Positions 1-64,000 of a stretch of 64,000 bases of DNA are shown here, piece by piece. Made by a program: the position numbers and the translations under genes. The DNA comes from Cinnamomum chago (lineage: Eukaryota; Streptophyta; Magnoliopsida; Laurales; Lauraceae). Position 1 is the first letter of the stretch. Each line of letters begins with the position of its first letter. The DNA is taken from positions 63,914,001-63,978,000 of the forward strand of contig CP142459.1 in assembly GCA_038049695.1 (NCBI GenBank), read 5' to 3'. Below the pieces are notes generated by a model. The model was not told the origin of the DNA and made no database searches. It saw only the letters and a program-made list of their open reading frames with translations.

Positions 1-489
1 GATATTATTTAATCCAATTGTTATTCACACATGTCCCTCCATCATATTGTGAACTAAGCCCAGACCCGTCACCCACCAACAAGTAAAATAAGGAAAAAAA
101 GCCAAAAAAATCGTTTTGCAGGATTGCCGCCGTATTCATCCGCGGTATTCCTACAATTTCCGGTTTTCCTACTCTCACAGAGGAGGAAAACTGGAAATTG
201 CGAATTTATGACGACGAAAACTGGAAAATGCGAGTGTACCGCCCATGCCAGCAGCGGTAAAGCTGCATGAGTGTCCAAATGAAGTCCCAGGACCTTTCCA
301 TTTCCAATTAACGTAAAGTAGAATGAAAGAATCCACAGTTGCGTTTTTTCTTGTAGCCCATATATAGTGAACTCCCATATGATATGAATAGACAGAAAAA
401 AAAAAATCACACAAGCTGACTTTGGTAATAGACATAGTTGCTTATATGCACAAAAAATCAGTGATGTGTCGACTACTAGGGCATGTTTG

Positions 490-1008
490 TAGGGTTGCAA
501 AAGGAACGGTTCCGCATCGGAACCATAGTGGGCCCGGACACGTTTCTAAATAACGGTTTCGGTTCCGGATCCGGTCTTGACTCGGAACGTGTTTAGTTGG
601 TTCTAGACCCGGCACCGATAGGAAAACCCAGATCCGGGTCCACCTAGAGGACTGGAATCTAGTTCCAAAATTGATTTTAATTTATATTTTTCCTTCATTT
701 TTGTTAAAATAAGCATATCATTTAGCTTATAACGGTGCGTCAAATTCTACTACCTCTAATATTGCATATAAAAATGTCCAAAAAAAGTAGATTTTGAGGT
801 ACAATTTGCAATATCAAACGCTCATAAGCAGGGTCCTGGGTCCACATGTCGGAACCCGTTTGGACACGGACCCGTTTATCAATCGGAACCTAAATTAGGT
901 TACGGACCCGGACACGTTTAAGAATAATCGGAACGTAAAATAGGTTCCCGACCCGGTTTTTTTACAGGTCGGATCTTTCGGGTAATCGGATACCCGTTTG
1001 CAGCCCTA
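490..1008. mobile_element. hAT-type MITE, unit 1 copy (519 bp; type description)
   Basis: The left end 'tagggttgcaaaaggaac' matches the reverse complement of the right end, 'tagggctgcaaacggg'. The 8 bp before it are 'catgtttg'; the 8 bp after are 'taagtctg' here and 'caagtctg' in most units (6 of 8 matching). Subterminal regions are GC-rich with many 'cggaac', 'ggacccg' and 'ggacacgttt' motifs, and the middle is AT-rich. Ends, 8-bp duplication and subterminal motif clusters are hallmarks of hAT elements. There is no room for a transposase, so it is non-autonomous. Confidence 0.8.
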
Positions 1009-1026
1009 TAAGTCTGCGAGTATAGG

Positions 1027-1293
1027 CTATTTTTTTTTTTTTTGTCCAGTTGAAATGTCGGTTTCGCTGGTTTCTCGTATATTCTCAACCGTAGATATTA
1101 AGATCTTTGGTTTTTTACGGTAACAATTATGCACCCTGTATAGTAGAATCAATAATTTTGTAGAACCCAAGATACATTTAGTTTGAAAATTTCCCCGAAA
1201 ATATAGGTCGTGCATGGCCATGAGATTGTTAAACACATATACAATTGTCATGGGCTGCATTCTCACTTTAAGACCAGCGAAAACGTTGTTCAA
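1027..1293 (-). other. Minus-strand ORF of 77-125 codons kept in most units, coding status doubtful
   Basis: The frame starts MNNVFAGLKV and runs to the A-rich tract, where length changes shift the frame and give different C-termini between units. Eighty-odd residues are shared. Replacements between units are frequent (for example GNFQ/RNFQ/RNFP, DISTG/VISTG/GISTG). I recognise no domain. A homopolymer deciding the C-terminus argues against a maintained protein. It could be the tail of a decayed exon. Confidence 0.3.
1030..1043. repeat. Poly(T) tract (poly(A) on the minus strand)
   Basis: 14 T here. The length varies between units from about 11 to about 20, and in units 20-24 it is broken by one C. 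On the minus strand it directly follows 'ttcaactggac', like a retroposed poly(A) tail. Confidence 0.85.
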
Positions 1294-1390
1294 TGCATGG
1301 GTTAAATAATATATGAAATAAGAAAGAGAGGGTTAAATGATCATAACAGAATGGTGAGTCAAATATATGTCGACTGTAACGAAAATAGAT

Positions 1391-1412
1391 AGACAGCTGT
1401 CAAAAGCTGTCT
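1391..1412. repeat. 8-bp perfect inverted repeat agacagct / agctgtct
   Basis: Arms 1391-1398 and 1405-1412 flank the loop 'gtcaaa'. It is kept in most units; unit 5 ('agacagcggtc'), unit 18 ('aaaagttgtctc') and unit 19 (loop change) carry single changes. No function is evident. Confidence 0.6.
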
Positions 1413-1458
1413 CAGAATGTCTCTCCTCTCTTTTCAGGCGATTGTAACGGGAAACTCC

Positions 1459-1470
1459 CCATATATAGGA
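1459..1470 (-). promoter_or_regulatory. TATA-box-like site on the minus strand
   Basis: The minus strand reads 'tcctatatatggggag', a good plant TATA match, about 170 bp upstream of the MNNVF frame. It is kept in every unit. A second similar site ('ctatatatggg') lies in segment A at about 359-369. No start-site motif or transcript evidence is available. Confidence 0.3.
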
Positions 1471-2190
1471 TTCCTGCTGACCAAAAAGGCCATACACAAG
1501 TTAGCCCTAGCTAGCGCAAGCCTTTGAGAGTCCTTTTCGCCAACTCAGATGGGCCTACTCGGGAGACGGAGAGTGGTCTAGTTAGGACTAGATCAACTTG
1601 CTTAACGTATAATCATCCTAAATTGAGACAAGCATGCCCTTACTGAATCGATTTTTCCGTGTTCTGTCCATCTTGTACTTGGTTTGAGAGAGCCCAATCC
1701 GCTTCTACCTATTCCATAGTGAAACCCACTCGTCACCTGCAAGGATCCGATCCAAAACGCCCAGATGTTGCTGATTTTTTTAAGTAGGATTTAGTCACGA
1801 GTGGACACAGCCCTATTCGTCGACTTCTCACTCACGAACTATTTCATATTTGGTAAGCTTACTTTACCAGTTAAGTAAAGTGAAGGGCTAATATGAGGGA
1901 CTTTAAAAAGAGAGGCTCAAATAAAAAAAATATTAGGTTTCGAATACCATCTCTTCCATGAAAAAAAAATGTTAAAAGGACACTCTCTCATGCAAGATAA
2001 TGATAAAAAAAAAAAAAGACAAGGGGTGTTCATTGAAGAGGTAGGGCTATTCCGAGGAATGCCCAAAAGCCACTTCTAAACTAGAAGCCTTAACCAGGCC
2101 CAAGCATGAGTCACGCCTGAAGTTTTTGGCCCGGACCCAAGCCGCATGGAAATGATGAAGCCCGAGCCCGGCCTATAGAAATTTTTTTTT

Positions 2191-2297
2191 AGCTTCTTAC
2201 CAAGTCCTAAGCCAACACAGCTGTTCTGGTCACCTTCTCTTTGAGGTCATGGGCTTGAGTCCCCGCATTGCTGCTCCCTCCCTCCCTCCCTCCCTCA
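2191..2297 (+). mobile_element. tRNA-derived SINE-like fragment nested in element D (shown in unit 1)
   Basis: 'ggtcatgggcttgagtcccc' at 2245-2264 resembles a tRNA T-arm. Within it 'ggcttgagtcc' matches the RNA polymerase III box B consensus at most positions. No convincing box A is visible at the expected distance, and the tail is (CCCT)n(TA)n rather than poly(A). This suggests a decayed SINE; it is not a functional tRNA gene. Confidence 0.4.
2274..2296 (-). repeat. (CCCT)n tract with G-quadruplex potential on the minus strand
   Basis: Five CCC runs with single-T spacers give GGGA repeats on the minus strand, the strict G3 with one-base-loop pattern. The run number varies: three in units 20 and 21, interrupted in unit 4, four to five elsewhere. 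Confidence 0.8.
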
Positions 2298-2298
2298 C

Positions 2299-2324
2299 AA
2301 ATATATATATATATAAATATATAT
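2299..2324. repeat. (TA)n microsatellite
   Basis: It directly follows the (CCCT)n tract. Its length and interruptions differ between nearly all units and provide the main unit-length variation. The longest tracts are in units 6 (about 15287), 8 (about 20540) and 19 (about 51776). Confidence 0.9.
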
Positions 2325-2781
2325 GTTTGGGCGGGACGGGAATATCGGCTTTCAAGCACTAAGTGTAAATAAATAATAAATAATAAAAAGAAACCGAGCA
2401 CGGCATATCTATTAATAATTGAACCCCATGCCCAAAGCCCAATCCTTGAGCTCCCATAAAAAAAAAAAAAAAAAAAAAAAAATACTCCACTTTTTAACAG
2501 AGAAAATAAAAATGCTACTCTCACCTTTTGATTCTACTACTCCCTTACTTTTGTTCTATCTTATATTGACCTGTTACTCAACTTCACCGGTAAAGTAAAT
2601 TTACGATTTATTTCATTTATTGTGATTTGATATTATTTAATCCAATAGTTATTCACACATGTCCCTCCATCATATTGTGAACTAAGCCCAGACCCGTCAC
2701 CCACCAACAAGTAAAATAAGGAAAAAAAGCCAAAAAAATCGTTTTGCAGGATTGCCGCCGTATTCATCCGCGGTATTCCTA

Positions 2782-2828
2782 CAATTTCCGGTTTTCCTCC
2801 TCTCACAGAGGAGGAAAACTGGAAATTG
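2782..2828. repeat. 47-nt near-perfect hairpin (22-bp stem, 3-nt loop)
   Basis: The left arm 2782-2803 (from 'caatttccgg') and the right arm 2807-2828 (to 'actggaaattg') pair at 21 of 22 positions. The exception is a G/T opposition that wobble-pairs in RNA. The loop is 'cac'. It lies 153 bp after each unit start in most units. Arms are weakened in units 1, 3 and 5 ('cctactctc'), 18, 22, 23 and 24. It is too short and too tight-looped for a standard plant miRNA precursor. Confidence 0.9.
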
Positions 2829-2866
2829 CGAATTTATGACGACGAAAACTGGAAAATGCGAATTTA
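2814..2866. repeat. 23-bp direct repeat, 30-bp period, overlapping the hairpin arm
   Basis: 2814-2836 and 2844-2866 both begin 'gaaaactggaaa' and end 'tgcgaattta', matching at 22 of 23 positions. They are separated by 'tgacgac'. The first copy overlaps the right hairpin arm, so the arm sequence occurs three times within about 85 bp. Confidence 0.85.
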
Positions 2867-2889
2867 CCGCCCATGCCAGCAGCGGTAAA
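2863..2889. repeat. 8-bp inverted repeat tttaccgc / gcggtaaa
   Basis: A perfect 8-bp stem with an 11-nt loop ('ccatgccagca') directly follows the direct repeat. In units 1, 3 and 5 the outer bases change and only 6 bp pair. Confidence 0.7.
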
Positions 2890-3116
2890 GCTGCATGAGT
2901 GTCCAAATGAAGTCCCAGGACCTTTCCATTTCCAATTAACATAAAGTAGAATGAAAGAATCCACAGTTGCGTTTTTTCTTATAGCCCATATATAGTGAAC
3001 TCCCATATGATATGAATAGACAGAAAAAAAAAATCACACAAGCTGACTTTGGCAATAGACATAGTTGCTTATATGCACAAAAAATCAGTGATGTGTCGAC
3101 TACTAGGGCATGTTTG

Positions 3117-3635
3117 TAGGGTTGCAAAAGGAACGATGCCGCATCGGAACCATAGTGGGCCCGGACACGTTTCTAAATAACGGTTCCGGTTCCGGATCCG
3201 GTCTTGACTCGGAACGTGTTTAGTTGGTTCTAGACCCGACACCGATAGGAAAACCCAGATCCGGGTCCACCTAGAGGACTGGAATCTAGTTCCAAAATTG
3301 ATTTTAATTTATATTTTTCCTTCATTTTTGTTAAAATAAGCATATCATTTAGCTTATAACGGTGCGTCAAATTCTACTACCTCTAATATTGCATATAAAA
3401 ATGTACAAAAAAAGTTGATTTTGAGGTACAATTTGCAATATCAAACGCTCATAAGCCGGGTCCTGGGTCCACATGTCGGAACCCGTTTGGACACGGACCC
3501 GTTTATCAATCGGAACCTAAATTAGGTTACGGACCCGGACACGTTTAAGAATAATCGGAACGTAAAATAGGTTCCCGACCCGGTTTTTTTACAGGTCGGA
3601 TCTTTCGGGTAATCGGATACCCGTTTGCAGCCCTA
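3117..3635. mobile_element. hAT-type MITE, unit 2 copy
   Basis: 519 bp. The left subterminal palindrome is altered to 'ggaacgatgcc'; right flank 'taagtctg'. Confidence 0.78.
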
Positions 3636-4475
3636 TAAGTCTGCGAGTATAGGCTATTTTTTTTTTTTTTTGTCCAGTTGAAATGTCGGTTTCGCTGGTT
3701 TCTCGTATATTCTCAACCGTAGATATTAAGATCTTTGGTTTTTTACGGTAACAATTATGCACCCTGTATAGTAGAATCAATAATTTTGTAGAACCCAAGA
3801 TACATTTAGTTTGAAAATTTCCCCGAAAATATAGGTCGTGCATGGCCATGAGATTGTTAAACACATATACAATTGTCATGGGCTGCATTCTCACTTTAAG
3901 ACCAGCGAAAACGTTGTTCAATGCATGGGTTAAATAATATATGAAATAAGAAAGAGAGGGTTAAATGATCATAACAGAATGGTGAGTCAAATATATGTCG
4001 ACTGTAACGAAAATAGATAGACAGCTGTCAAAAGCTGTCTCAGAATGTCTCTCCTCTCTTTTCAGGCGATTGTAACGGGAAACTCCCCATATATAGGATT
4101 CCTGCTGACCAAAAAGGCCATACACAAGTTAGCCCTAGCTAGCGCAAGCCTTTGAGAGTCCTTTTCGCCAACTCAGATGGGCCTACTCGGGAGACGGAGA
4201 GTGGTCTAGTTAGGACTAGATCAACTTGCTTAACGTATAATCATCCTAAATTGAGACAAGCATGCCCTTACTGAATCGATTTTTCCGTGTTCTGTCCATC
4301 TTGTACTTGGTTTGAGAGAGCCCATTCCGCTTCTACCTATTCCATAGTGAAACCCACTCGTCACCTGCAAGGATCCGATCCAAAACGCCCAGATGTTGCT
4401 GATTTTTTTAAGTAGGATTTAGTCACGAGTGGACACAGCCCTATTCGTCGACTTCTCACTCACGAACTATTTCAT

Positions 4476-5251
4476 ATTTGGTAAGCTTACTTTACCAGTT
4501 AAGTAAAGTGAAGGGCTAATATGAGGGACTTTAAAAAGAGAGGCTCAAATAAAAAAAATATTAGGTTTCGAATACCATCTCTTCCATGAAAAAAAAATGT
4601 TAAAAGGACACTCTCTCAGGCAAGATAATGATAAAAAAAAAAAAAGACAAGGGGTGTTCATTGAAGGGGTAGGGCTATTCCGAGGAATGCCCAAAAGCCA
4701 CTTCTAAACTAGAAGCCTTAACCAGGCCCAAGCATGAGTCACGCCTGAAGTTTTTGGCCCGGACCCAAGCCGCATGGAAATGATGAAGCCCGAGCCCGGC
4801 CTATAGAAATTTTTTTTTAGCTTCTTACCAAGTCCTAAGCCAACACAGCTGTTCTGGTCACCTTCTCTTTGAGGTCATGGGCTTGAGTCCCCGCATTGCT
4901 GCTCCCTCCCTCCCTCCCTCACAAATATATATTTATATATATATATATATATATATATAAATATATGTTTGGGCGGGACGAGAATATCGGCTTTCAAGCA
5001 CTAGGTGTAAATAATTAATAAATAATAAAAAGAAACCGAGCACGGCATATCTATTAATAATTGAACCCCATGCCCAAAGCCCAATCCTTGAGCTCCCATA
5101 AAAAATTAAAAAAATAATAAAAAAATACTCCACTTTTTAACAGAGAAAATAAAAATGCTACTCTCACCTTTTGATTCTACTACTCCCTTACTTTTGTTCT
5201 ATCTTATATTGACCTGTTACTCAACTTCACCGGTAAAGTAAATTTACGATT
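4476..5251. mobile_element. TIR element D, unit 2 copy
   Basis: 776 bp; lengthened by the long (TA)n tract. Confidence 0.58.
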
Positions 5252-5759
5252 TATTTCATTTATTGTGATTTGATATTATTTAATCCAATTGTTATTCACA
5301 CATGTCCCTCCATCATATTGTGAACTAAGCCCAGACCCGTCACCCACCAACAAGTAAAATAAGGAAAAAAAGCCAAAAAAATCGTTTTGCAGGATTGCCG
5401 CCGTATTCATCCGCGGTATTCCTACAATTTCCGGTTTTCCTACTCTCACAGAGGAGGAAAACTGGAAATTGCGAATTTATGACGACGAAAACTGGAAAAT
5501 GCGAGTGTACCGCCCATGCCAGCAGCGGTAAAGCTGCATGAGTGTCCAAATGAAGTCCCAGGACCTTTCCATTTCCAATTAACGTAAAGTAGAATGAAAG
5601 AATCCACAGTTGCGTTTTTTCTTGTAGCCCATATATAGTGAACTCCCATATGATATGAATAGACAGAAAAAAAAAATCACACAAGCTGACTTTGGTAATA
5701 GACATAGTTGCTTATATGCACAAAAAATCAGTGATGTGTCGACTACTAGGGCATGTTTG

Positions 5760-6278
5760 TAGGGTTGCAAAAGGAACGGTTCCGCATCGGAACCATAGTG
5801 GGCCCGGACACGTTTCTAAATAACGGTTCCGGTTCCGGATCCGGTCTTGACTCGGAACGTGTTTAGTTGGTTCTAGACCCGGCACCGATAGGAAAACCCA
5901 GATCCGGGTCCACCTAGAGGACTGGAATCTAGTTCCAAAATTGATTTTAATTTATATTTTTCCTTCATTTTTGTTAAAATAAGCATATCATTTAGCTTAT
6001 AACGGTGCGTCAAATTCTACTACCTCTAATATTGCATATAAAAATGTCCAAAAAAAGTAGATTTTGAGGTACAATTTGCAATATCAAACGCTCATAAGCA
6101 GGGTCCTGGGTCCACATGTCGGAACCCGTTTGGACACGGACCCGTTTATCAATCGGAACCTAAATTAGGTTACGGACCCGGACACGTTTAAGAATAATCG
6201 GAACGTAAAATAGGTTCCTGACCCGGTTTTTTTACAGGTCGGATCTTTCGGGTAATCGGATACCCGTTTGCAGCCCTA
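5760..6278. mobile_element. hAT-type MITE, unit 3 copy
   Basis: 519 bp; right flank 'caagtctg'; 'ttcctgaccc' near 6216 where others have 'ttcccgaccc'. Confidence 0.78.
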
Positions 6279-7117
6279 CAAGTCTGCGAGTATAGGCTTT
6301 TTTTTTTTTTTTTGTCCAGTTGAAATGACGGTTTCGCTGGTTTCTCGTAGATTCTCAACCGTAGATATTAAGATCTTTGGTTTTTTACGGTAACAATTAT
6401 GCACCCTGTATAGTAGAATCAATAATTTTGTAGAACCCAAGATACATTTAGTTGGAAAATTTCTCCGAAAATATAGGTCGTGCATGGCCATGAGATTGTT
6501 AAACACATATACAATTGTCATGGGCTGCATTCTCACTTTAAGACCAGCGAAAACGTTGTTCAATGCATGGGTTAAATAATATATGAAATAAGAAAGAGAG
6601 GGTTAAATGATCATAACAGAATGGTGAGTCAAATATATGTCGACTGTAACGAAAATAGATAGACAGCTGTCAAAAGCTGTCTCAGAATGCTTCTCCTCTC
6701 TTCTTAGGCGATTTTAACGGGAAACTCCCCATATATAGGATTCCTGCTGACCAAAAAGGCCAGACACAAGTTAGCCCTAGCTAGCGCAAGCCTTTGAGAG
6801 TCCTTTTCGCCAACTCAGATGGGCCTACTCGGGAGACGGAGAGTGGTCTAGTTAGGACTAGATCAACTTGCTTAACGTATAATCATCCTAAATTGAGACA
6901 AGCATGCCCTTACTGAATCGATTTTTCCGCGTTCTGTCCATCTTGTACTTGGTTTGAGAGAGCCCAATCCGCTTCTACCTATTCCATAGTGAAACCCACT
7001 CGTCACCTGCAAGGATCCGATCCAAAACGCCCAGATGTTGCTGATTTTTTTAAGTAGGATTTAGTCACGAGTGGACACAGCCCTATTCGTCGACTTCTCA
7101 CTCACGAACTATTTCAT

Positions 7118-7870
7118 ATTTGGTAAGCTTACTTTACCAGTTAAGTAAAGTGAAGGGCTAATATGAGGGACTTTAAAAAGAGAGGCTCAAATAAAAAAAA
7201 TATTAGGTTTCGAATACCATCTCTTCCATGAAAAAAAAATGTTAAAAGGACACTCTCTCATGCAAGATAATGATAAAAAAAAAAGACAAGGGGTGTTCAT
7301 TGAAGAGGTAGGGCTATTCCGAGGAATGCCCAAAAGCCACTTCTAAACTAGAAGCCTTAACCAGGCCCAAGCATGAGTCACGCCTGAAGTTTTTGGCCCG
7401 GACCCAAGCCGCATGGAAATGATGAAGCCCGAGCCCGGCCTATAGAAATTTTTTTTTAGCTTCTTACCAAGTCCTAAGCCAACACAGCTGTTCTGGTCAC
7501 CTTCTCTTTGAGGTCATGGGCTTGAGTCCCCGCATTGCTGCTCCCTCCCTCCCTCCCTCACAAATATATATATATAAATATATATGTTTGGGCGGGACGA
7601 GAATATCGGCTTTCAAGCACTAGGTGTAAATAATTAATAAATAATAAAAAGAAACCGAGCACGGCATATCTATTAATAATTGAACCCCATGCCGAAAGCC
7701 CAATCCTTGAGCTCCCATAAAAAATTAAAAAAATAATAAAAAAATACTCCACTTTTTAACAGAGAAAATAAAAATGCTACTCTCACCTTTTGATTCTACT
7801 ACTCCCTTACTTTTGTTCTATCTTATATTGACCTGTTACTCAACTTCTCCGGTAAAGTAAATTTACTATT
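7118..7870. mobile_element. TIR element D, unit 3 copy
   Basis: 753 bp; right end 'tttactatt' instead of 'tttacgatt'. Confidence 0.58.
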
Positions 7871-8378
7871 TATTTCATTTATTGTGATTTGATATTATTT
7901 AATCCAATTGTTATTCACACATGTCCCTCCATCATATTGTGAACTAAGCCCAGACCCGTCACCCACCAACAAGTAAAATAATTAAAAAAAGCCAAAAAAA
8001 TCATTTTGCAGGATTGCCGCCGTATTCATCCGCGGTATTCCTACAATTTCCGGTTTTCCTCCTCTCACAGAGGAGGAAAACTGGAAATTGCGAATTTATG
8101 ACGACGAAAACTGGAAAATGCGAATTTACCGCCCATGCCAGCAGCGGTAAAGCTGCATGAGTGTCCAAATGAAGTCCCAGGACCTTTCCATTTCCAATTA
8201 ACATAAAGTAGAATGAAAGAATCCACAGTTGCGTTTTTTCTTATAGCCCATATATAGTGAACTCCCATATGATATGAATAGACAGAAAAAAAAAATCACA
8301 CAAGCTGACTTTGGCAATAGACATAGTTGCTTATATGCACAAAAAATCAGTGATGTGTCGACTACTAGGGCATGTTTG

Positions 8379-8897
8379 TAGGGTTGCAAAAGGAACGGTG
8401 CCGCATCGGAACCATAGTGGGCCCGGACACGTTTCTAAATAACGGTTCCGGTTCCGGATCCGGTCTTGACTCGGAACGTGTTTAGTTGGTTCTAGACCCG
8501 ACACCGATAGGAAAACCCAGATCCGGGTCCACCTAGAGGACTGGAATCTAGTTCCAAAATTGATTTTAATTTATATTTTTCCTTCATTTTTGTTAAAATA
8601 AGCATATCATTTAGCTTATAACGGTGCGTCAAATTCTACTACCTCTAATATTGCATATAAAAATGTACAAAAAAAGTTGATTTTGAGGTACAATTTGCAA
8701 TATCAAACGCTCATAAGCCGGGTCCTGGGTCCACATGTCGGAACCCGTTTGGACACGGACCCGTTTATCAATCGGAACCTAAATTAGGTTACGGACCCGG
8801 ACACGTTTAAGAATAATCGGAACGTAAAATAGGTTCCCGACCCGGTTTTTTTACAGGTCGGATCTTTCGGGTAATCGGATACCCGTTTGCAGCCCTA
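8379..8897. mobile_element. hAT-type MITE, unit 4 copy
   Basis: 519 bp; near-identical to the unit 2 copy; right flank 'taagtctg'. Confidence 0.78.
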
Positions 8898-11012: not shown

Positions 11013-11531
11013 TAGGGTTGCAAAAGGAACGGTTCCGCATCGGAACCATAGTGGGCCCGGACACGTTTCTAAATAACGGTTCCGGTTCCGGATCCGGTCT
11101 TGACTCGGAACGTGTTTAGTTGGTTCTAGACCCGGCACCGATAGGAAAACCCAGATCCGGGTCCACCTAGAGGACTGGAATCTAGTTCCAAAATTGATTT
11201 TAATTTATATTTTTCCTTCATTTTTGTTAAAATAAGCATATCATTTAGCTTATAACGGTGCGTCAAATTCTACTACCTCTAATATTGCATATAAAAATGT
11301 CCAAAAAAAGTTGATTTTTAGGTAAAATTTGCAATATCAAACGCTCATAAGCCGGGTCCTGGGTCCACATGTCGGAACCCGTTTGGACACGGACCCGTTT
11401 ATCAATCGGAACCTAAATTAGGTTACGGACCCGGACACGTTTAAGAATAATCGGAACGTAAAATAGGTTCCCGACCCGGTTTTTTTACAGGTCGGATCTT
11501 TCGGGTAATCGGATACCCGTTTGCAGCCCTA
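11013..11531. mobile_element. hAT-type MITE, unit 5 copy
   Basis: 519 bp; private changes in the AT-rich middle ('tttttaggtaaaatttg' near 11315). Confidence 0.78.
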
Positions 11532-12372
11532 CAAGTCTGCGAGTATAGGCTTTTTTTTTTTTTTTTTTGTCCAGTTGAAATGACGGTTTCGCTGGTTTCT
11601 CGTATATTCTCAACCGTAAATATTAAGATCTTTGGTTTTTTACGGGAACAATTATGCACCCTGTTTAGTAGAATCAATAATTTCGAAGAACCCAAGATAC
11701 ATTTAGTTTGAAAATTTCTCCGAAAATATAGGTCGTGCATGGCCATGAGATTGTTAAACACATATACAATTGTCATGGGCTGCATTCTCACTTTAAGACC
11801 AGCGAAAACGTTGTTCAATGCATGGGTTAAATAATATATGAAATAAGAAAGAGAGGGTTAAATGATCATAACAGAATGGTGAGTCAAATATATGTCGACT
11901 GTAACGAAAATAGATAGACAGCGGTCAAAAGCTGTCTCAGAATGTCTCTCCTCTCTTTTTAGGCGATTTTAACGGGAAACTCCCCATATATAGGATTCCT
12001 GCTGACCAAAAAGGCCAGACACAAGTTAGCCCTAGCTAGCGCAAGCCTTTGAGAGTCCTTTTCGCCAACTCAGATGGGCCTACTCGGGAGACGGAGAGTG
12101 GTCTAGTTAGGACTAGATCAACTTGCTTAACGTATAATCATCCTAAATTGAGACAAGCATGCCCTTACTGAATCGATTTTTCCGAGTTCTGTCCATCTTG
12201 TACTTGGTTTGAGAGAGCCCATTCCGCTTCTACCTATTCCATAGTGAAACCCACTCGTCACCTGCAAGGATCCGATCCAAAACGCCCAGATGTTGCTGAT
12301 TTTTTTAAGTAGGATTTAGTCACGAGTGGACACAGCCCTATTCGTCGACTTCTCACTCACGAACTATTTCAT

Positions 12373-13129
12373 ATTTGGTAAGCTTACTTTACCAGTTAAA
12401 TAAAGTGAAGGGCTAATATGAGGGACTTTAAAAAGAGAGGGTCAAATAAAAAAAATATTAGGTTTCGAATACCATCTCTTCCATGAAAAAAAAATGTTAA
12501 AAGGACACTCTCTCATGCAAGATAATGATAAAAAAAAAGACTAGGGGTGTTCATTGAAGAGGTAGGGCTATTCCGAGGAATGCCCAAAAGCCACTTCTAA
12601 ACTAGAAGCCTTAACCTGGCCCAAGCATGTGTCACGCCGAAGATTTTGGCCTGGACCCAAGCCGCATGGAAAAGATGAAGCCCGAGCCCGGCCTATAGAT
12701 AAAATTTTTTAGCTTCTTACCAAGTCCTAAGCCAACACAGCTGTTCTGGTCACCTTCTCTTTGAGGTCATGGGCTTGAGTCCCCGCATTGCTGCTCCCTC
12801 CCTCCCTCCCTCACAAATATATATATATATATATAAATCTATATGTTTGGGCGGGACGAAAATATCGGCTTTCAAGCACTAAGTGTAAATAAATAATAAA
12901 TAATAAAAAGAAACCGAGCACGGCATATCTATTAATAATTGAACCCCATGCCCAAAGCCCAATCCTTGAGCTCCCATAAAAAATTAAAAAAATAAAAAAA
13001 AATAACTCCACTTTTTAATAGAGAAAATAAAAATGCTACTCTCACCTTTTGATTCTACTACTCCCTTACTTTTGTTCTATCTTATATTGACCTGTTACTC
13101 AACTTCACCGGTAAAGTAAATTTACGATA
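12373..13129. mobile_element. TIR element D, unit 5 copy
   Basis: 757 bp; diverged interior near 12617-12710. Confidence 0.58.
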
Positions 13130-13518
13130 TATTTCATTTATTGTGATTAGATATTATTTAATCCAATTGTTATTCACACATGTCCCTCCATCATATTGTG
13201 AACTAAGCCCAGACGTGTCACCCACCAACAAGTAAAATAATGAAAAAAAGCCAAAAAAATCGTTTTGCAGGATTGCCGCCGTATTCATCCGCGGTATTCC
13301 TACAATTTCCGGTTTTCCTCCTCTCACAGAGGAGGAAAACTAGAAATTGCGAATTTATGACGACGAAAACTGGAAAATGCGAATTTACCGCCCATGCCAG
13401 CAGCGGTAAAGCTGCATGAGTGTCCAAATGAAGTCCCAGGACCTTTCCATTTCCAATTAACATAAAGTAGAATGAAAGAATCCACAGTTGCGTTTTTTCT
13501 TATAGCCCATATATAGTG

Positions 13519-13996
13519 GGCCCGGACACGTTTCTAAATAACGGTCCCGGTTCCGGATCCGGTCTTGACTCGGAACGTGTTTAGTTGGTTCTAGACCCGG
13601 CACCGATAGGAAAACCCAGATCCGGGTCCACCTAGAGGACTGGAATCTAGTTCCAAAATTGATTTTAATTTATATTTTTCCTTCATTTTTGTTAAAATAA
13701 GCATATCATTTAGCTTATAACGGTGCGTCAAATTCTACTACCTCTAATATTGCATATAAAAATGTCCAAAAAAAGTTGATTTTCAGGTACAATTTGCAAT
13801 ATCAAACGCTCATAAGCCGGGTCCTGGGTCCACATGTCGGAACCCGTTTGGACACGGACCCGTTTATCAATCGGAACCTAAATTAGGTTACGGACCCGGA
13901 CACGTTTATGAATAATCGGAACGTAAAATAGGTTCCCGACCCGGTTCTTTTACAGGTCGGATCTTTCGGGTAATCGGATACCCGTTTGCAGCCCTA
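13519..13996. mobile_element. hAT-type MITE, unit 6 copy, left end deleted
   Basis: Starts at 'ggcccgg', right after the deletion junction. The left inverted repeat and left flank are missing. The right end is intact. Confidence 0.75.
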
Positions 13997-15275: not shown

Positions 15276-15316
<41 letters not shown>

Positions 15317-29353: not shown

Positions 29354-29358
29354 GCACC
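29354..29358. repeat. Target-site duplication, left copy (gcacc)
   Basis: Identical to 31711-31715. Uninterrupted units have a single 'gcacc' in 'cccggcaccgatag'. Confidence 0.88.
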
Positions 29359-29610
29359 TGTAAGTCCATGGGGATCCGAACCCTAGAGGGGGGGTGAATA
29401 GGGTGAGCTTCTTCTATGACCAATTTTAACAATTTTAAATTCTTAAAAACAAACTAGTCACATGTGATGATTAATCATACAAGATGCGGAAGCTAACAAA
29501 AGAATCATCACAAAGCAAACACCATAACACAAGTATTTGTAGTGGTTCGGCCTCAATGCCTACATCCACTACCGGCTTGTGATCCAACACCCCACCGGAT
29601 TTCCACTATT

Positions 29611-29750
29611 TATGCTTTTCAATAGGCTAAGCAATAACCTTTACAATATGCTTTCCAAGGCTAAGCAATAACCTTTACATTGATGTTTTTCAAGGCTTAA
29701 CATCAACCTACACACTATGCTTTTATAGGCTAAGCAATAACCTCTTCAAC
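29611..29750. repeat. Four ~35-bp tandem repeats in the LTR
   Basis: Units at 29611, 29647, 29681 and 29716 (34-36 bp) follow the pattern 'tatgctttt..aggctaagcaataacct'. The third is the most diverged ('ggcttaacatcaacct'). Confidence 0.75.
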
Positions 29751-30247
29751 CATAGGTTGGTTATCTCACTAAGATAGTGTCTTTAATACACTTGATGGAG
29801 ATTCAATTAAGCTCATTACATTGCCTCTTAATTAGGCGGATATGGAAGTGTAATTCTAATACACACTCACACTAAGAATGCAAAGATGAAAACATATGAA
29901 GTGTGTGTGTGTGGTCCTCAATCATTTTGAAAATGAAAGCTCATAAATGTAAGCCTAAGGCTTTTGAAAGTTTTAGCTTATAAAACATTTATGATTGAGG
30001 ATATAGTACAATCACATGTTAAAAGTAACAACTTGTTAATGATATCAAAGTTACACAAGTTGTATGAAATGGATTAGCTCTAAACATGTGATGCATAGGG
30101 ATGTCAATCAAATCATCAATGTAGCTCAAAACATAAAAATAGATTTGATTGAAATTAGGGGACAAATCATATGTAATTATAAAGACAACTTGAAAATGAT
30201 TTACCAATCAAAGTAAGGCAAGTTGTGAAACATTAAAACAATAATAC

Positions 30248-30841
30248 ACATATGATTTGTAATGATGTTGAATCCAAAACATAAGATACATTTGAAAGAG
30301 ATTTTCTTATGATGGAAAACAACAACCAAAGATTTAACAAAGTATATGAATCATGTTACATATTTCATTAACATGATCTACTTAGATTTACCAAAGATAA
30401 AGTACTACTTTGATGAATCAATGGTGATATATCCAAAACAATAGATCTATTCAAAATATAGAACATGCTAAGGATACAACAAATCATAGATTAACATGTT
30501 ACTAAGATTTACCAATGATAAAGCAAAATATGAAAACATATGATTTGTAAAGAAGTTGAATCCAAAACATAAGTTAGTTTTGAAAGAGATGTTCTTATGA
30601 TGGAAAACAACAACCAAAGATTCAACCCAGTATATGGATCATGTTACATATAATTCCAAAGGTTTTTCCATTAACATGATCTACTTAGATTTACCAAAGT
30701 TAAGTACTACTTGGATTGAATCATATGGTGTTGTATCCAAAACAATAAATCAACTCAAAACATAAAACATGTTAAGGACACAACACAAACATAGTTTAAC
30801 ATGCTAGAAATGATTTACCAAAAATAAAACAAAGCATGAAA
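30248..30841. repeat. Internal tandem duplication in the LTR (~288 bp + ~306 bp)
   Basis: 30248-30535 and 30536-30841 both start 'acatatgatttgtaa'. They share in order 'gttgaatccaaaacataag', 'cttatgatggaaaacaac', 'acatgatctacttag' and 'tatccaaaacaat'. Divergence is appreciable, with small indels. A third start ('acatatgat') occurs at 30842. Confidence 0.8.
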
Positions 30842-31010
30842 ACATATGATTAAGAAAGGAAGAGCCTACTTGGTGGTTTAACTTCATTAATCCAAGCTTT
30901 AGCTTTCCTAATCTTCCCCTTCATCCCTTGGTTCTTTTCCCTTTTGATATGCCTCAATACCTCTCAAGGAGGGGCTTAAAAATCCCAACTTTTGGAAAGG
31001 GAAAGAACTC

Positions 31011-31020
31011 ATTTTTATAG
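31011..31020 (-). promoter_or_regulatory. Probable LTR TATA box
   Basis: The minus strand reads 'ggctataaaaatgag', a near-consensus plant TATA box about 690 bp from the LTR 5' end (31710). This fits a U3 promoter with transcription towards 29359. Confidence 0.55.
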
Positions 31021-31049
31021 CCAAAACAGCCCAACGGCTAGTTTACCCG

Positions 31050-31213
31050 GTCAACCGGCCAAAACAGGCAGGTTAACCGGCCAAGCACAACGGTCATAAA
31101 AAGAGCCGTTGTGTTTTGGGTCATCCTGCACTGTGGCCGGTTAACCGGGCTAACATGGCCGGTTAACCGGCTACACTGCGGGTTGACCACCCCGGTTAAC
31201 CCCATGGTTAACC
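31050..31213. promoter_or_regulatory. Cluster of GGTTAACC palindromes upstream of the LTR TATA box
   Basis: Five 'gttaac' hexamers (about 31072, 31140, 31162, 31195 and 31207) and two variants ('gtcaac' 31050, 'gttgac' 31183) are embedded mostly in 'ccggttaaccgg' contexts. An 8-bp hairpin 'cacaacgg'/'ccgttgtg' (31086-31113) lies among them. The block is GC-rich within an AT-rich LTR and sits where U3 enhancers are expected. The binding factor is unknown. Confidence 0.5.
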
Positions 31214-31710
31214 CCGCAGCACCAAAATTCCCAAAAAATGCATTTTTCACAGTTTTGCTTGGGGGAACTTTTTGGCCACTAAATCAAGCTTGGAAAACAT
31301 GTTTTAAAGATTCTAAAGGTTTTTAAAACATGACATAAAAAGCCTAAAAAGTTTCAAAACTTTTAAAACAAAGGCTTGCTTGATTTCTAAAAACTCCTTT
31401 TTCAAAAACAATGCATACACATATGATTATGAAGGGATGAATGTATGCAAAGTTCAAACCTAAATGCTCAACAAGATTTTCCAAATATAATGCACAAGGA
31501 AATAGGTTTTCAAAAGAGTTTGGGTTTCAAAACTAATGCATCCAAGTTTAAAACCAAACCATGCATAAAACAAAAGCCTTTCCAAATCTTAAAAGCTATG
31601 CATGTATAAAACCAGATTTCAAGGTTTTCTAAAACAATGCAAGTGTGAGAATTCAAATGATGCTAAAGTGCAAATGCATCCATCAAATTGCAAATACAAA
31701 ATCCCTAACA

Positions 31711-31715
31711 GCACC
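31711..31715. repeat. Target-site duplication, right copy (gcacc)
   Basis: It directly follows the terminal 'taaca' and leads back into the MITE sequence 'gataggaaaacc'. Confidence 0.88.
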
Positions 31716-51771: not shown

Positions 51772-51812
<41 letters not shown>

Positions 51813-52102
51813 TATATGTTTGGGCGGGACGGGAATATCGGCTTTCAAGCACTAAGTGTAAATAAATAATAAATAATAAAAAGAAACCGAGCACGGCATA
51901 TCTATTAATAATTGAACCCCATGCCCAAAGCCCAATCCTTGAGATCCCATAAAAAATTAAAAAAAATAATAATAAATACTCCACTTTTTAACAGAGAAAA
52001 TAAAAATGCTACTCTCACCTTTTGATTCTACTACTCCCTTACTTTTGTTCTATCTTATATTGACCTGTTACTCAACTTCACCGGTAAAGTAAATTTACGA
52101 TT
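51329..52102. mobile_element. TIR element D, unit 19 copy
   Basis: 774 bp; long (TA)n tract. Confidence 0.58.
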
Positions 52103-57854: not shown

Positions 57855-58373
57855 TAGGGTTGCAAAAGGAACGGTTCCGCATCGGAACCATAGTGGGCCC
57901 GGACACGTTTCTAAATAACGGTTCCGGTTCCGGATCCGGTCTTGACTCGGAACGTGTTTCGTTGGTTCTAGACCCGGCACCGATAGGAAAACCCAGATCC
58001 GGGTCCACCTAGAGGACTGGAATCTAGTTCCAAAATTGATTTTAATTTATATTTTTCCTTCATTTTTGTTAAAATAAGCATATCATTTAGCTTATAACGG
58101 TGCGTCAAATTCTACAACCTCTAATATTGCATATAAAAATGTCCAAAAAAAGTTGATTTTGAGGTACAATTTGCAATATCAAACGCTAATAAGCCGGGTC
58201 CTGGGTCCACATGTCGGAACCCGTTTGGACACGGACCCGTTTATTAATCGGAACCTAAATTAGGTTACGGACCCGGACACGTTTATGAATAATCGGAACG
58301 TAAAATAGGTTCCCGACCCGGTTTTTTTACAGGTCGGATCTTTCGGGTAATCGGATACACGTTTGCAGCCCTA
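57855..58373. mobile_element. hAT-type MITE, unit 22 copy
   Basis: 519 bp; the right inverted repeat has 'atacacgtttgc'. Confidence 0.78.
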
Positions 58374-59215
58374 CAAGTCTGCGAGTATAGTCTTTTTTTT
58401 TCTTTTTTTTTGTCCAGTTGAAATGACGGTTTCGCTGGTTTCACGTTTATTCTCAACCGTAGATATTAAGATCTTTGGTTTTTTACGGTAACAATTATGC
58501 ACCCTGTATAGTAGAATCAATAATTTCGTAGAACCCAAGATACATTTAGTTTGGAAATTTCTCCGAAAATATAGGTCGTGCATGGCCATGAGATTGTTAA
58601 ACACATATATAATTGTCATGGGCTGCATTCTCACTTTAAGACCAGCAAAAACGTTGTTCAATGCATGGATTAAATAATATATGAAATAAGAAAGAGAGGG
58701 TTAAATGATCATAACAGAATGGTGAGTCAAATATATGTTGACTGTAACGAAAATAGATAGACAGCTGTCAAAAGCTGTCTCAGAATGTCTCTCCTCTCTT
58801 TTTAGGCGATTTTAACGGGAAACTCCCCATATATAGGATTCCTGCTGACCAAAAAGGCCAGACACAAGTTAGCCCTAGCTAGCGCAAGCCTTTGAGAGTC
58901 CTTTTCGCCAACTCAGATGGGCCTACTCGGGAGACGGAGAGTGGTCTAGTTAGGACTAGATCAACTTGCTTAACGTATAATCATCCTAAATTGAGACAAG
59001 CATGCCCTTACTGAATCGATTTTTCCGTGTTCTGTCCATCTTGTACTTGGCTTGAGAGAGCCCATTTCGCTTCTACCTATTCCATAGTGAGACCCACTCG
59101 TCCCCTGCAAGGATCCGATCCAAAATGCCCAGATGTTGCTGATTTTTTTAAGTAGGATTTAGTCACGAGTGGACACAGCCCTATTCGTCGACTTCTCACT
59201 CACGAACTATTTCAT

Positions 59216-59974
59216 ATTTGGTAAGCTTACTTTACCAGTTAAGTAAAGTGAAGGGCTAATATGAGGGACTTTAAAAAGGGAGGGTCAAATAAAAAAAATA
59301 TTAGGTTTCGAATACCATCTCTTCCATGAAAAAAAAATGTTAAAAGGACACTCACTCATGCAAGATAATGATAAAAAAAAGAAAAACTAGGGGTGTTCAT
59401 TGAAGAGGTAGGGCTATTCCGAGGAATGCCCAACAGCCACTTCTAAACTAGAAGCCTTAACCTGGCCCAAGCATGAGTCACGCCTGAAGTTTTTGGCCCG
59501 AACCCAAGCCGCATGGAAATGATGAAGCCCGAGCCCGGCCTATAGAAAAAAAAATTTAGCTTCTTACCAAGTCCTAAGCCAACACAGCTGCTCTGGTCAC
59601 CTTCTCTTTGAGGTCATGGGCTTGATTCCCCGGATTGCTGCTCCCTCCCTCCCTCCCTCACAAATATATATATATATTTAAATATATATGTTTGGGCGGG
59701 ACGGGAATATCGGCTTTCAAGCACTAAGTGTAAATAAATAATAAATAATAAAAAGAAACCGAGCACGGCATATCTATTAATAATTGAACCCCATGCCCAA
59801 AGCCCAATCCTTGAGCTCCCATAAAAAATTAAAAAAATAATAAAAAAATACTCCACTTTTTAACAGAGAAAATAAAAATGCTACTCTCACCTTTTGATTC
59901 TACTACACCCTTACTTTTGTTCTATCTTATATTGACCTGTTACTCAACTTCACCGGTAAAGTAAATTTACGATT
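59216..59974. mobile_element. TIR element D, unit 22 copy
   Basis: 759 bp; private 'tatatttaaatata' near 59667. Confidence 0.58.
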
Positions 59975-60482
59975 TATTTCATTTATTGTGATTTGATATT
60001 ATTTAATCCAATTGTTATTCACACATGTCCCTCCATCATATTGTGAACTAAGCCCAGACCCGTCACCCACCAACAAGTAAAATAAGGAAAAAAAGCCAAA
60101 AAAATTGTTTTGCAGGATTGCCGCCGTATTCATCCGCGGTATTCCTACAATTTCCGGTTTTCCATCTCTCACAGAGGAGGAAAACTGGAAATTGCGAATT
60201 TATGACGACGAAAACTGGAAAATGCGAATTTACCGCCCATGCCAGCAGCGGTAAAGCTGCATGAGTGTCCAAATGAAGTCCCAGGACCTTTCCATTTCCA
60301 ATTAACATAAAGTAGAATGAAAGAATCCACAGTTGCGTTTTTTCTTATAGCCCATATATAGTGAACTCCCATATGATATGAATAGACAGAAAAAAAAAAT
60401 CACACAAGCTGACTTTGGCAATTGACATAGTTGCTTATATGCACAGAAAATCAGTGATGTGTCGACTACTAGGGCATGTTTG

Positions 60483-61001
60483 TAGGGTTGCAAAAGGAAC
60501 GGTTCCGCATCGGAACCATAGTGGGCCCGGACACGTTTCTAAATAACGGTCCCGGTTCCAGATCCGGTCTTGACTCGGAACGTGTTTAGTTGGTTCTAGA
60601 CCCGGCACCGATAGGAAAACCCAGATCCAGGTCCACCTAGAGGACTGGAATCTAGTTTCAAAATTGATTTTAATTTATATTTTTTACTTCATTTTTGTAA
60701 AAATAAGCATATCATTTAGCTTATAACGGTGCGTCAAATTCCACTACCTCTAATATTGCATGTAAAAATGTCCAAAAAAGTTGATTTTGAGGTACAATTT
60801 GCAATATCAAACGCTCATAAGCCGGGTCCTGGGTCCACATGTCGGAACCCGTTTGGACACGGACCCGTTTATCAATCGGAACCTAAATTAGGTTACGGAC
60901 CCGGACAAGTTTATGAATAATCGGAACGTAAAATAGGTTCCCGACCCGGTTTTTTTACAGGTCGGATCTTTCGGGTAATCGGATACCCGTTTGCAGCCCT
61001 A
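60483..61001. mobile_element. hAT-type MITE, unit 23 copy
   Basis: 519 bp; the most diverged interior, with changes at 60549-60780 ('ggtcccggttccag', 'ttttttacttc', 'gcatgtaaaaatg'). Confidence 0.78.
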
Positions 61002-61843
61002 CAAGTCTGCGAGTATAGGCTTTTTTTTTTCTTTTTTTTGTCCAGTTGAAATGACGGTTTCGCTGGTTTCACGTTTATTCTCAACCGTAGATATTAAGAT
61101 CTTTGGTTTTTTACGGTAACAATTATGCACCCTGTATAGTAGAATCAATAATTTCGTAGAACCCAAGATACATTTAGTTTGGAAATTTCTCCGAAAATAT
61201 AGGTCGTGCATGGCCATGAGATTGTTAAAGACATATATAATTGTCATGGGCTGCATTCTCACTTTAAGACCAGCAAAAACGTTGTTCAATGCATGGTTTA
61301 AATAATATATGAAATAAGAAAGAGAGGGTTAAATGATCATAACAGAATGGTGAGTCAAATATATGTTGACTGTAACGAAAATAGATAGACAGCTGTCAAA
61401 AGCTGTCTCAGAAAGTCTCTCCTCTCTTTTTAGGCGATTTTAAAGGGAAACTTCCCATATATAGGATTCCTGCTGACCAAAAAGGCCAGACACAAGTTAG
61501 CCCTAGCTAGCGCAAGCCTTTGAGAGTCCTTTTCGCCAACTCAGATGGGCCTACTCGGGAGACGGAGAGTGGTCTAGTTAGGACTAGATCAACTTGCTTA
61601 ACGTATAATCATCCTAAATTGAGACAAGCATGCCCTTACTGAATCGATTTTTCCGTGTTCTGTCCATCTTGTACTTGGTTTGAGAGAGCCCATTCCGCTT
61701 CTACCTATTCCATAGTGAAACCCACTCGTCACCTGCAAGGATCCGATCCAAAATGCCCAGATGTTGCTGATTTTTTTAAGTAGGATTTAGTCACGAGTGG
61801 ACACAGCCCTATTCGTCGACTTCTCACTCACGAACTATTTCAT

Positions 61844-62596
61844 ATTTGGTAAGCTTACTTTACCAGTTAAGTAAAGTGAAGGGCTAATATGAGGGACTTT
61901 AAAAAGAGAGGGTCAAATAAAAAAAATATTAGGTTTCGAATACCATCTCTTCCATGAAAAAAAATGTTAAAAGGACACTCACTCATGCACGATAATGTAA
62001 AAAAAAAAAAAATAGGGGTGTTCATTGAAGAGGTAGGGCTATTCCGAGGAATGCCCAACAGCCACTTCTAAACTAGAAGCCTTAACCTGGCCCAAGCATG
62101 AGTCACGCCTGAAGTTTTTGGCCCGAACCCAGGCCGCATGGAAATGATGAAGCCCGAGCCCGGCCTATAGAAAAAAAATTTAGCTTCTTACCAAGTCCTA
62201 AGCCAACACAGCTGCTCTGGTCACCTTCTCTTTGAGGTCATGGGCTTGAGTCCCCGCATTGCTGCTCCCTCCCTCCCTCCCTCACAAATATATATATATG
62301 TAAATATATATGTTTGGGTGGGACGGGAATATCGGCTTTCAAGCACTAAGTGTAAATAAATAATAAATAATAAAAAGAAACCGAGCACGGCATATCTATT
62401 AATAATTGAACCCCATGCCCAAAGCCCAATCCTTGAGCTCCCATAAAAAATTAAAAAAATAATAAATAAATACTCCACTTTTTAACAGAGAAAATAAAAA
62501 TGCTACTCTCACCTTTTGATTCTACTACTCCCTTACTTTTGTTCTATCTTATATTGACCTGTTACTCAACTTCACCGGTAAAGTAAATTTACGATT
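61844..62596. mobile_element. TIR element D, unit 23 copy
   Basis: 753 bp; (TA)n broken by a G ('atatgtaaata') near 62295. Confidence 0.58.
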
Positions 62597-62616
62597 TATT
62601 TCATTTATTGTGATTT

Positions 62617-64000
62617 GATATTATTTAATCCAATTGTTATTCACACATGTCCCTCCATCATATTGTGAACTAAACCCAGACCCGTCACCCACCAACAAGT
62701 AAAATAAGGAAAAAAAGCCAAAAAAATCGTTTTGCAGGATTGCCGCCATATTCATCCGCGGTATTCCCACAATTTCCGGTTTTCCATCTCTCACAGAGGA
62801 GGAAAACTGGAAATTGCGAATTTATGACGACGAAAACTGGAAAGTGCGAATTTACCGCCCATGCCAGCAGCGGTAAAGCTGCATGAGTGTCCAAATGAAG
62901 TCCCAGGACCTTTCCATTTCCAATTAACATAAAGTAGAATGAAAGAATCCACAGTTGCGTTTTTTCTTATAGCCCATATATAGTGAACTCCCATATGATA
63001 TGAATAGACAGAAAAAAAAAATCACAGAAGCTGACTTTGGCAATTGACATAGTTGCTTATATGCACAGAAAATCAGTGATGTGTCGACTACTAGGGCATG
63101 TTTGTAGGGTTGCAAAAGGAACGGTTCCGCATCGGAACCATAGTGGGCCCGGACACGTTTCTAAATAACGGTTCCGGTTCCGGATCCGGTCTTGACTCGG
63201 AACGTGTTTAGTTGGTTCTAGACCCGGCACCGATAGGAAAACCCAGATCCGGGGCCACCTAGAGGACTGGAATCTAGTTCCAAAATTGATTTTAATTTAT
63301 ATTTTTCCTTCATTTTTGTTAAAATAAGCATATCATTTAGCTTATAACGGTGCGTCAAATTCTACTACCTCTAATATTGCATATAAAAATGTCCAAAAAA
63401 AGTTGATTTTGAGGTACAATTTGCAAAATATCAAACGCTCATAAGCCGGGTCCTGGGTCCACATGTCGGAACCCGTTTGGACACGGACCCGTTTATCAAT
63501 CGGAACCTAAATTAGGTTACAGACCTGGACACGTTTATGAATAATCGGAACGTAAAATAGGTTCCCGACCCGGTTTTTTTACAGGTCGGATCTTTCGGGT
63601 AATCGGATACCCGTTTGCAGCCCTACAAGTCTGCGAGTATAGGCTTTTTTTTTCTTTTTTTTTGTCCAGTTGAAATGACGGTTTCGCTGGTTTCAGGTTT
63701 ATTCTCAACCGTAGATATTAAGATCTTTGGTTTTTTACGGTAACAATTATGCACCCTGTATAGTAGAATCAATAATTTCGTAGAACCCAATATACATTTA
63801 GTTTGGAAATTTCTCCGAAAATATAGGTCGTGCATGGCCATGAGATTGTTAAACACATATAATTGTCATGGGCTGCATTCTCAATTTAAGACCAGCAAAA
63901 ACGTTGTTCAATGCATGGATTAAATAATATATGAAATAAGAAAGAGAGGGTTAAATGATCATAACAGAATGGTGAGTCAAATATATGTTGACTGTAACGA
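62617..64000. repeat. Satellite unit 24, cut by the window end (1384 bp seen)
   Basis: Contains segment A, a complete MITE and about 375 bp of the core. It has the C-broken poly(T) tract near 63654 and a private 'gcaaaatatc' insertion near 63424. Confidence 0.95.
63105..63625. mobile_element. hAT-type MITE, unit 24 copy
   Basis: 521 bp owing to a small insertion near 63424. Confidence 0.78.

What the first reader, a model, noticed from the sequence alone, without database searches (positions are those of the whole stretch)
1..64000. A ≥64-kb array of a 2.6-kb satellite built from transposon pieces
Typical plant satellites have units of about 150-400 bp. Here a 2.62-kb unit holding two TIR elements, a SINE-like piece and unrecognised sequence is repeated 23 times or more with few differences, in one orientation. 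This shows a mosaic locus amplified as a whole, by unequal exchange or rolling-circle reinsertion. It is the best candidate for something undescribed in the window: a macrosatellite that might mark a centromere, heterochromatic knob or other structural domain.
Basis: partly seen in the sequence, partly recalled or inferred. Interest (0 to 1): 0.75.

Follow-up and report, generated by a model that had tools for sequence, protein, structure and literature searches.

The report
Kilobase-unit satellite array, camphor-relative tree
A stretch of about 2,600 letters is repeated head to tail some 67 times on one chromosome of the tree Cinnamomum chago, and related versions form similar blocks on other chromosomes; it looks like an undescribed long-unit satellite kept uniform by repeated DNA exchange, not a centromere.

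Summary
The array is real. The window holds 23 units of about 2.62 kb in one orientation (21 uninterrupted, one shortened, one split by an LTR-like insert), mean pairwise identity 98.0%. It is the middle of a 177-kb array (C9:63879117-64056102) in Cinnamomum chago, identified by exact organelle lengths. It is not unique: two pattern searches find 1,028 and 1,085 related places, and the rows shown lie in arrays or small groups on C2, C4, C6, C8 and C9, mostly 1-11 Mb from chromosome ends. One C2 and one C8 unit match the whole unit at about 92%. The unit contains one well-supported 519-bp hAT-like element and is otherwise unrecognised. The mechanism is readable: a 485-bp segment of the C2/C8 units survives in C9 only in the two outermost units, while 64 inner places share a deletion junction found nowhere else. 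Neighbours are more alike than chance, blocks are duplicated, and 13 neighbouring units average 99.90% identity. That fits homogenisation by unequal exchange or conversion. The published putative centromere repeat is absent. New member of a known kind; no evidence of function.

The parts
1..64000 (+). part of a 177-kb head-to-tail array of a 2.62-kb unit (whole array C9:63879117-64056102)
   Evidence: strand is that of the reference unit as read, no transcription known
6001..8619 (+). reference unit (unit 3 of 23); the start point is arbitrary
8379..8897 (.). 519-bp hAT-like element (TIR TAGGGTTGCAAA / TTTGCAGCCCTA); 23 exact left ends and 24 exact right ends in the window
   Evidence: diverged relatives (63-70%) of this piece alone in the left flank; scattered end matches
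8371..8378 (.). left copy of the 8-bp target duplication (CATGTTTG); the right copy follows 8897 (TAAGTCTG here; CAAGTCTG in two other units printed; CATGTCTG in the C2 unit)
7129..7860 (.). possible second TIR pair (TTACTTTACC ... GGTAAAGTAA), 732 bp from end to end, no target duplication found; weak
7511..7530 (+). box-B-like motif, the possible SINE remnant; exact in 20 places in the window
   Evidence: copies; identification recalled, no tRNA/Rfam hit
8044..8090 (.). near-perfect hairpin, arms of 22 bases as reported, 3-base loop
   Evidence: present in the sampled C2 and C8 units
29359..31710 (.). 2,352-bp solo-LTR-like insertion (TG...CA) into one unit; not part of the unit
29354..29358 (.). 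target-site duplication GCACC, left copy (right copy 31711-31715)
11254..13718 (+). unit shortened to 2,465 bp by an internal deletion near 13513-13518

Best explanation
This is a non-coding macrosatellite (long-unit satellite) family of Cinnamomum chago. Shown: a mosaic unit of up to about 3.1 kb, holding a 519-bp hAT-like insertion, exists in tandem on several chromosomes; the units read from C9, C2 and C8 differ by their own deletions (485 bp in C9, about 350 bp in C2) and substitutions; within the C9 array the long form survives only at the two edges and a deletion variant fills the inside. Inferred: the array grew and was kept uniform by unequal crossing-over between misaligned units or sister chromatids and by conversion, in blocks of one to about a dozen units; copies were seeded on other chromosomes by rare ectopic exchange or circle reinsertion, after which each array evolved largely alone. 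No selected function is needed to explain what is seen.
For: Array and identity. Same whole unit on C2 (92.8% of 2,238 aligned sites against the C9 consensus) and C8 (91.6% of 2,581), one unit each. The 485-bp segment occurs in the 244 kb of C9 only in the two edge units, 90% identical to C8; the deletion junction (up to 3 mismatches) has 64 places, all in this array. Neighbour identity 0.9882 against 0.9810 (sd 0.0005) in 2,000 shuffles of unit order, none reaching it (61 units). Units 05, 06, 07, 08 and 10 have their best match in units 16, 18, 19, 20 and 21 (99.6-99.8%), units 32 and 33 in 34 and 35. Units 46-58 (13, 78 pairs) average 99.90%, minimum 99.77%. In a tree of 21 rows (18 of the 61 C9 units, the right edge unit, one C8, one C2) the C9 rows separate from C2 and C8 (100/100), and with those two as outgroup the right edge unit branches first, then the last complete unit n61 (the fork uniting the other C9 units with n61 has 100/100, the next 87/92). 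No Pfam domain in three unit ORFs, no Rfam or tRNA hit. Organelle lengths equal those of the C. chago assembly.
Against: Only one unit each of C2 and C8 was read; other arrays are known from patterns of 27-35 bases, and most lists were cut at 100 rows. How copies reached other chromosomes is not shown. The first complete unit on the left, n01, does not branch deep in the tree; the left edge fragment was not put in. The unit keeps CpG better than its surroundings (observed/expected 0.87; 0.74 outside a 528-bp stretch with the hAT-like piece; seven flank stretches 0.28-0.56; LTR-like inserts 0.28 and 0.38), and some stretches vary little within C9; decay of a silenced satellite would not predict the former. 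Young copies and homogenisation could explain it. Transcription was not examined.
Confidence: 0.85

Rival explanations
1. A functional array: the unit carries a promoter or non-coding RNA gene, or a structural element like mammalian DXZ4, and copy number and sequence are kept by selection.
For: CpG retention; low-diversity stretches at unit positions 751-900, 1051-1125 and 2176-2250 within C9 (0.005-0.006 against 0.011-0.053 elsewhere); a 34-mer with 1,028 places within 3 mismatches; a CpG-to-CpA variant of 27 of its bases, with no other change, occurs once in the genome; TATA-like sequences (seen by eye).
Against: Those stretches are not clearly better conserved between arrays (C9-C8 identity 0.92-0.95 at 751-900 and 0.93 at 1051-1125, though 0.99 at 976-1050 and 0.96 at 2176-2250; whole unit 0.92), so recent homogenisation can explain them; no Rfam match; no domain in the three ORFs tested; one TATA-like stretch is missing from the C2 unit.
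Confidence: 0.07
2. The unit is itself a mobile element (Helitron-like or other rolling-circle element) that leaves tandem arrays when it transposes.
For: Units with the same content recur on several chromosomes; some loci show only one to a few places (C2:79.5, 82.8 and 85.6 Mb, C4:2.87 Mb, C6:4.34 Mb).
Against: The perfect matches shown for non-hAT parts lie mostly in tandem clusters, not scattered (lists cut at 100 rows); no domain found in the three ORFs tested; the C9 array breaks at different unit positions on its two sides, so no fixed element ends are seen. Helitron ends were not searched for.
Confidence: 0.06
3. A centromere or heterochromatic knob repeat.
For: Large tandem arrays in a plant; potato centromeres have long units (PMC3648361, passages).
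Against: A different putative centromere motif was published for this assembly and has no match in the 244 kb examined; C8 shows two arrays and C9 three, near both ends; gene-like ORFs in the left flank.
Confidence: 0.02
4. Assembly artefact: few real copies multiplied by the assembler.
For: The 13-unit block n46-n58 (about 34 kb, outside the window) is nearly identical and longer than the 18-kb HiFi reads, so its exact copy number is uncertain.
Against: The 23 units in the window differ from each other by at least 0.19%, so 18-kb HiFi reads, some seven units, should place them (inference); 80x HiFi plus 30x ONT, one gap in the whole assembly (PMC11068913).
Confidence: 0.02

Closest known systems
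Sobo satellite of wild potato (Solanum bulbocastanum)
   Same: kilobase unit (4.7 kb), array of about 360 kb, unit partly similar to a mobile element (PMC3648361 passages; the species name is recalled)
   Different: Sobo is pericentromeric and related to gypsy LTRs; here the arrays shown are mostly distal, several chromosomes carry diverged versions, and the recognised piece is hAT-like, not an LTR
Potato centromere-specific satellites of 979 bp to 5.4 kb
   Same: long units (PMC3648361 passages)
   Different: those span centromere cores; here the published centromere motif is a different sequence
2D8 repeat of potato (5.9 kb, dimer of about 3-kb monomers)
   Same: unit size, plant (PMC8122249 passages)
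   Different: 2D8 resembles the ribosomal intergenic spacer and is pericentric; no Rfam match at all here, though a spacer itself would not be in Rfam
Human macrosatellites D4Z4 (3.3 kb) and DXZ4 (3 kb, CpG-rich)
   Same: unit size, tens of copies, non-centromeric; raised CpG is shared with DXZ4 (PMC8122249 passages)
   Different: different organisms, no sequence relation expected (not compared); no domain found in the ORFs tested, no known chromatin role
LTR-retrotransposon-derived satellites of Lathyrus sativus
   Same: plant satellites arising from mobile-element sequence (PMC7004042 abstract)
   Different: those grew from short tandem repeats inside LTR elements, mainly in primary constrictions

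Membership tests
satellite / macrosatellite DNA | many head-to-tail copies of a unit, here of kilobase length | tested here: met
satellite / macrosatellite DNA | non-coding unit | tested here: met
   no Pfam hit for three ORFs, no Rfam or tRNA hit; transcription not tested, shorter ORFs not searched
satellite / macrosatellite DNA | concerted evolution: copies within an array more alike than between arrays | tested here: met
   98.1% within C9 (61 units) against 92-93% to one C2 and one C8 unit; tree
hAT-like non-autonomous element (519 bp piece) | terminal inverted repeats of hAT type | tested here: met
   TAGGGTTGCAAA / TTTGCAGCCCTA, 11 of 12; that this end type is hAT is recalled
hAT-like non-autonomous element (519 bp piece) | 8-bp target-site duplication | tested here: inconclusive
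   6 of 8 in the C9 consensus; 7 of 8 if the C9 left copy is set against the C2 right copy
hAT-like non-autonomous element (519 bp piece) | dispersed copies outside the arrays | tested here: met
   two diverged relatives (63-70%) in the left flank, one with a similar right end; six single places within 1 mismatch of the right end on C4, C5 and C9 away from known arrays
SINE-derived piece | Pol III boxes A and B, 3' tail, dispersed copies | tested here: inconclusive
   only a box-B-like motif, by eye; ARAGORN and Rfam negative; dispersed copies not sought
centromeric satellite | matches the putative centromere repeat of this genome | tested here: not met
   no match of the printed motif in 244 kb of C9 nor in the C8 unit
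centromeric satellite | CENH3 binding | not testable with these tools
   needs ChIP
Sobo-like LTR-derived satellite | unit similar to LTR retrotransposon sequence | not tested
   no transposon library available; the LTR-like sequences seen are later insertions

The most novel reading that the evidence does not exclude
A chromosome-end-biased family of gene-neighbouring, CpG-retaining macrosatellites in Lauraceae that stays unmethylated and acts as a chromatin or pairing element of the distal arms, with array-specific versions serving as chromosome-specific tags.
Probability: 0.05. Interest if true: 0.7.

Novelty: new member of a known kind. Interest (0 to 1): 0.35.

Why it matters
Long-unit satellites are hard to assemble. 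Here a near-complete assembly shows a whole array with the ancestral unit preserved at both edges and a deletion variant filling the inside. That makes the edge prediction of unequal-exchange models (cited from memory) directly measurable, and other arrays of the same family in the same genome offer repeats of the test. Array-specific deletions and unit lengths could also serve as chromosome markers for Cinnamomum cytogenetics.

Tried and rejected
Coding origin: Pfam on three window ORFs, nothing; the stop-to-stop list of the C8 unit was not searched. RNA gene: Rfam and ARAGORN negative. Centromere: rejected as above. Methylation-free state inferred from the mutation spectrum: dropped, since a low transition/transversion ratio is also seen between the two LTR-like inserts (86:142); only CpG observed/expected is reported. 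Hairpin as a dispersed element: the count 932+1,226 is not readable because the near-palindrome may match both strands; the 100 perfect places shown lie in the C4, C8 and C9 arrays or groups. Full map of arrays: most lists stop at 100 rows. No row on C1, C3, C7 or C10-C12 was shown in any pattern search, but C10-C12 come last in each list and were not reached by the 0-mismatch rows; C5 shows one hAT-end row., narrow patterns with complete lists (1 and 15 places), hit C8, and C2 and C9. Literature: I looked at the listings (25 of 74; 20 of 54; 15 of 432; 15 of 30; 6 of 6; none found; 8 of 18,498) and saw no paper on this repeat; that covers open-licence PMC papers only, no supplements or repeat libraries.
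Full report
Identity of the source. The window is C9:63914001-63978000 of a 1,061,006,199-base genome in 14 contigs. Contigs C13 and C14 are 707,525 and 152,753 bp; these are exactly the mitochondrial and chloroplast lengths given for Cinnamomum chago (PMC11068913; abstract, Methods part 1, Technical Validation, passages). That assembly used 80x HiFi and 30x ONT reads, has 12 chromosomes and one gap.

The observation. One 2,621-bp stretch finds 23 tandem units in the window, all in one orientation: 21 uninterrupted, one shortened, one split. Their mean pairwise identity is 98.0%. The split unit holds a 2,352-bp solo-LTR-like insert with a 5-bp target duplication. With flanks fetched the array runs from C9:63879117 to 64056102, about 67 units counting partial ones (my count from the rows). 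A second LTR-like insert of the same family, in the opposite orientation, starts at C9:63895962 and is about 2.2 kb long.

What the unit is made of. A 519-bp element with inverted ends TAGGGTTGCAAA/TTTGCAGCCCTA sits in the units: 23 left ends and 24 right ends match exactly in the window. Its flanks show a decayed 8-bp duplication. Two diverged relatives (63-70%) of this piece alone occur in the left flank. The rest (about 2.1 kb) has no recognised content: no Pfam domain in the three ORFs tested, no Rfam family, no tRNA. A short inverted pair and a hairpin are present. The SINE claim rests on a box-B-like motif recognised by eye.

A genome-wide family. A 30-mer of the C9 unit has 61 exact places, all in this array. 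A 34-mer from another part has 1,028 places within 3 mismatches and a 35-mer 1,085; the control patterns read backwards give 0. Three further unit patterns give 676, 906 and 665 (906 is the hAT end). The rows shown (at most 100 per search) reveal arrays at C2:1.93-2.10 Mb (spacing about 2.78 kb), C6:5.98-6.01 Mb (3.03 kb), C8:6.12-6.45 Mb (3.09 kb), C8:65.53-65.76 Mb or further (2.57 kb), C9:4.15-4.37 Mb or further (2.53 kb), the present one (2.62 kb) and C9:72.23-72.31 Mb or further (3.08 kb; seen with the hAT-end pattern only), with small groups on C2, C4 and C6. Of the 15 clusters or single places tabulated, 12 lie 1.0-11.2 Mb from the nearest end and three small C2 groups 25-31 Mb from it. 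Only one C2 unit and one C8 unit could be read: both match the C9 consensus over the whole unit, at 92.8% and 91.6% of aligned sites, apart from a 485-bp segment missing in C9, about 350 bp missing in C2, and smaller indels.

How it works. The 485-bp segment gives the clearest result. In 244 kb of C9 it occurs twice, once in each edge unit, 90% identical to the C8 copy. The junction left by its deletion has 64 places within 3 mismatches, all in this array, none elsewhere in the genome. The simplest reading is that the array was founded by the long form, a deletion arose inside it, and the short form then replaced the long one everywhere but at the edges. This is what repeated unequal exchange or conversion is expected to do (established theory, recalled). 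Further support comes from 61 units (one of them the shortened one; the two units split by inserts, one with a large internal deletion, and the partial edge units were left out): neighbours are more alike than in 2,000 shuffled orders; units 05, 06, 07, 08 and 10 match units 16, 18, 19, 20 and 21 best, and 32 and 33 match 34 and 35; units 46-58 average 99.90% identity, minimum 99.77% over 78 pairs. In the tree, with C2 and C8 as outgroup, the right edge unit branches first among the C9 rows, then the last complete unit (18 of 61 C9 units used); the first complete unit on the left does not branch deep, which is a point against a simple edge picture on that side. Transfer between chromosomes is inferred only.

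Surroundings. The left flank has a TCP-domain ORF (34 kb from the array), three tandem copies of an ORF with weak AAA_11 similarity below Pfam's cut-off (my recollection: SDE3/MOV10-like helicase), each with a proline/serine-rich ORF beside it, and a SWIM zinc-finger ORF of the kind found in MULE transposases (recalled). The nearest ORF of that cluster is 3.5 kb from the array; an unidentified ORF is 2.7 kb from it. One of the proline/serine-rich ORFs was not scanned. The right flank (32 kb) gave two ORFs of 150 residues or more; one had no Pfam hit, the other a weak one below the cut-off. The published putative centromere motif has no match in these 244 kb.

CpG. Observed/expected CpG is 0.87 in the array, 0.28-0.56 in seven flank stretches, 0.28 and 0.38 in the LTR-like inserts. 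The hAT-like stretch is CpG-rich (1.33); without it the unit consensus still has 0.74. This could mean weak methylation in the germ line, or merely youth and homogenisation. The mutation spectrum does not decide it.

Verdict. The centromere idea is not supported; the knob idea was not tested directly. I saw no description of this repeat in the paper listings that I looked at, but long-unit, transposon-related plant satellites are a known kind (PMC3648361 passages; PMC8122249 passages; PMC7004042 abstract).

Noticed in passing
C9:64011121-64045299 (L041-L044), outside the window: 13 neighbouring units with mean identity 99.90% (minimum 99.77%, 78 pairs): a very recent burst, and a place where the assembled copy number is doubtful.
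   Followed up: partly
C9:63844001-63876437 (L031-L034): Left flank holds a TCP-domain ORF and a three-fold tandem cluster of a helicase-like ORF (weak AAA_11) paired with a proline/serine-rich ORF.
   Followed up: partly
window 29359-31710 and C9:63895962 onwards (about 2.2 kb): Two solo-LTR-like inserts of one family in the same array in opposite orientation, 94% alike over 1.7 kb.
   Followed up: partly
C2, C8 and C9: Orientation differs between arms in the rows shown: C8 left +, right -; C9 left -, both right arrays +; C2 left has a small + block beside a large - block.
   Followed up: no
window, whole array: CpG observed/expected 0.87 against 0.28-0.56 in the flanks, which I would not expect of a silenced plant repeat.
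   Followed up: partly
window 7095-7128 in the reference unit (unit positions 1095-1128): A 34-mer with 1,028 places within 3 mismatches genome-wide; a CpG-to-CpA variant of 27 of its bases, otherwise unchanged, occurs once.
   Followed up: partly
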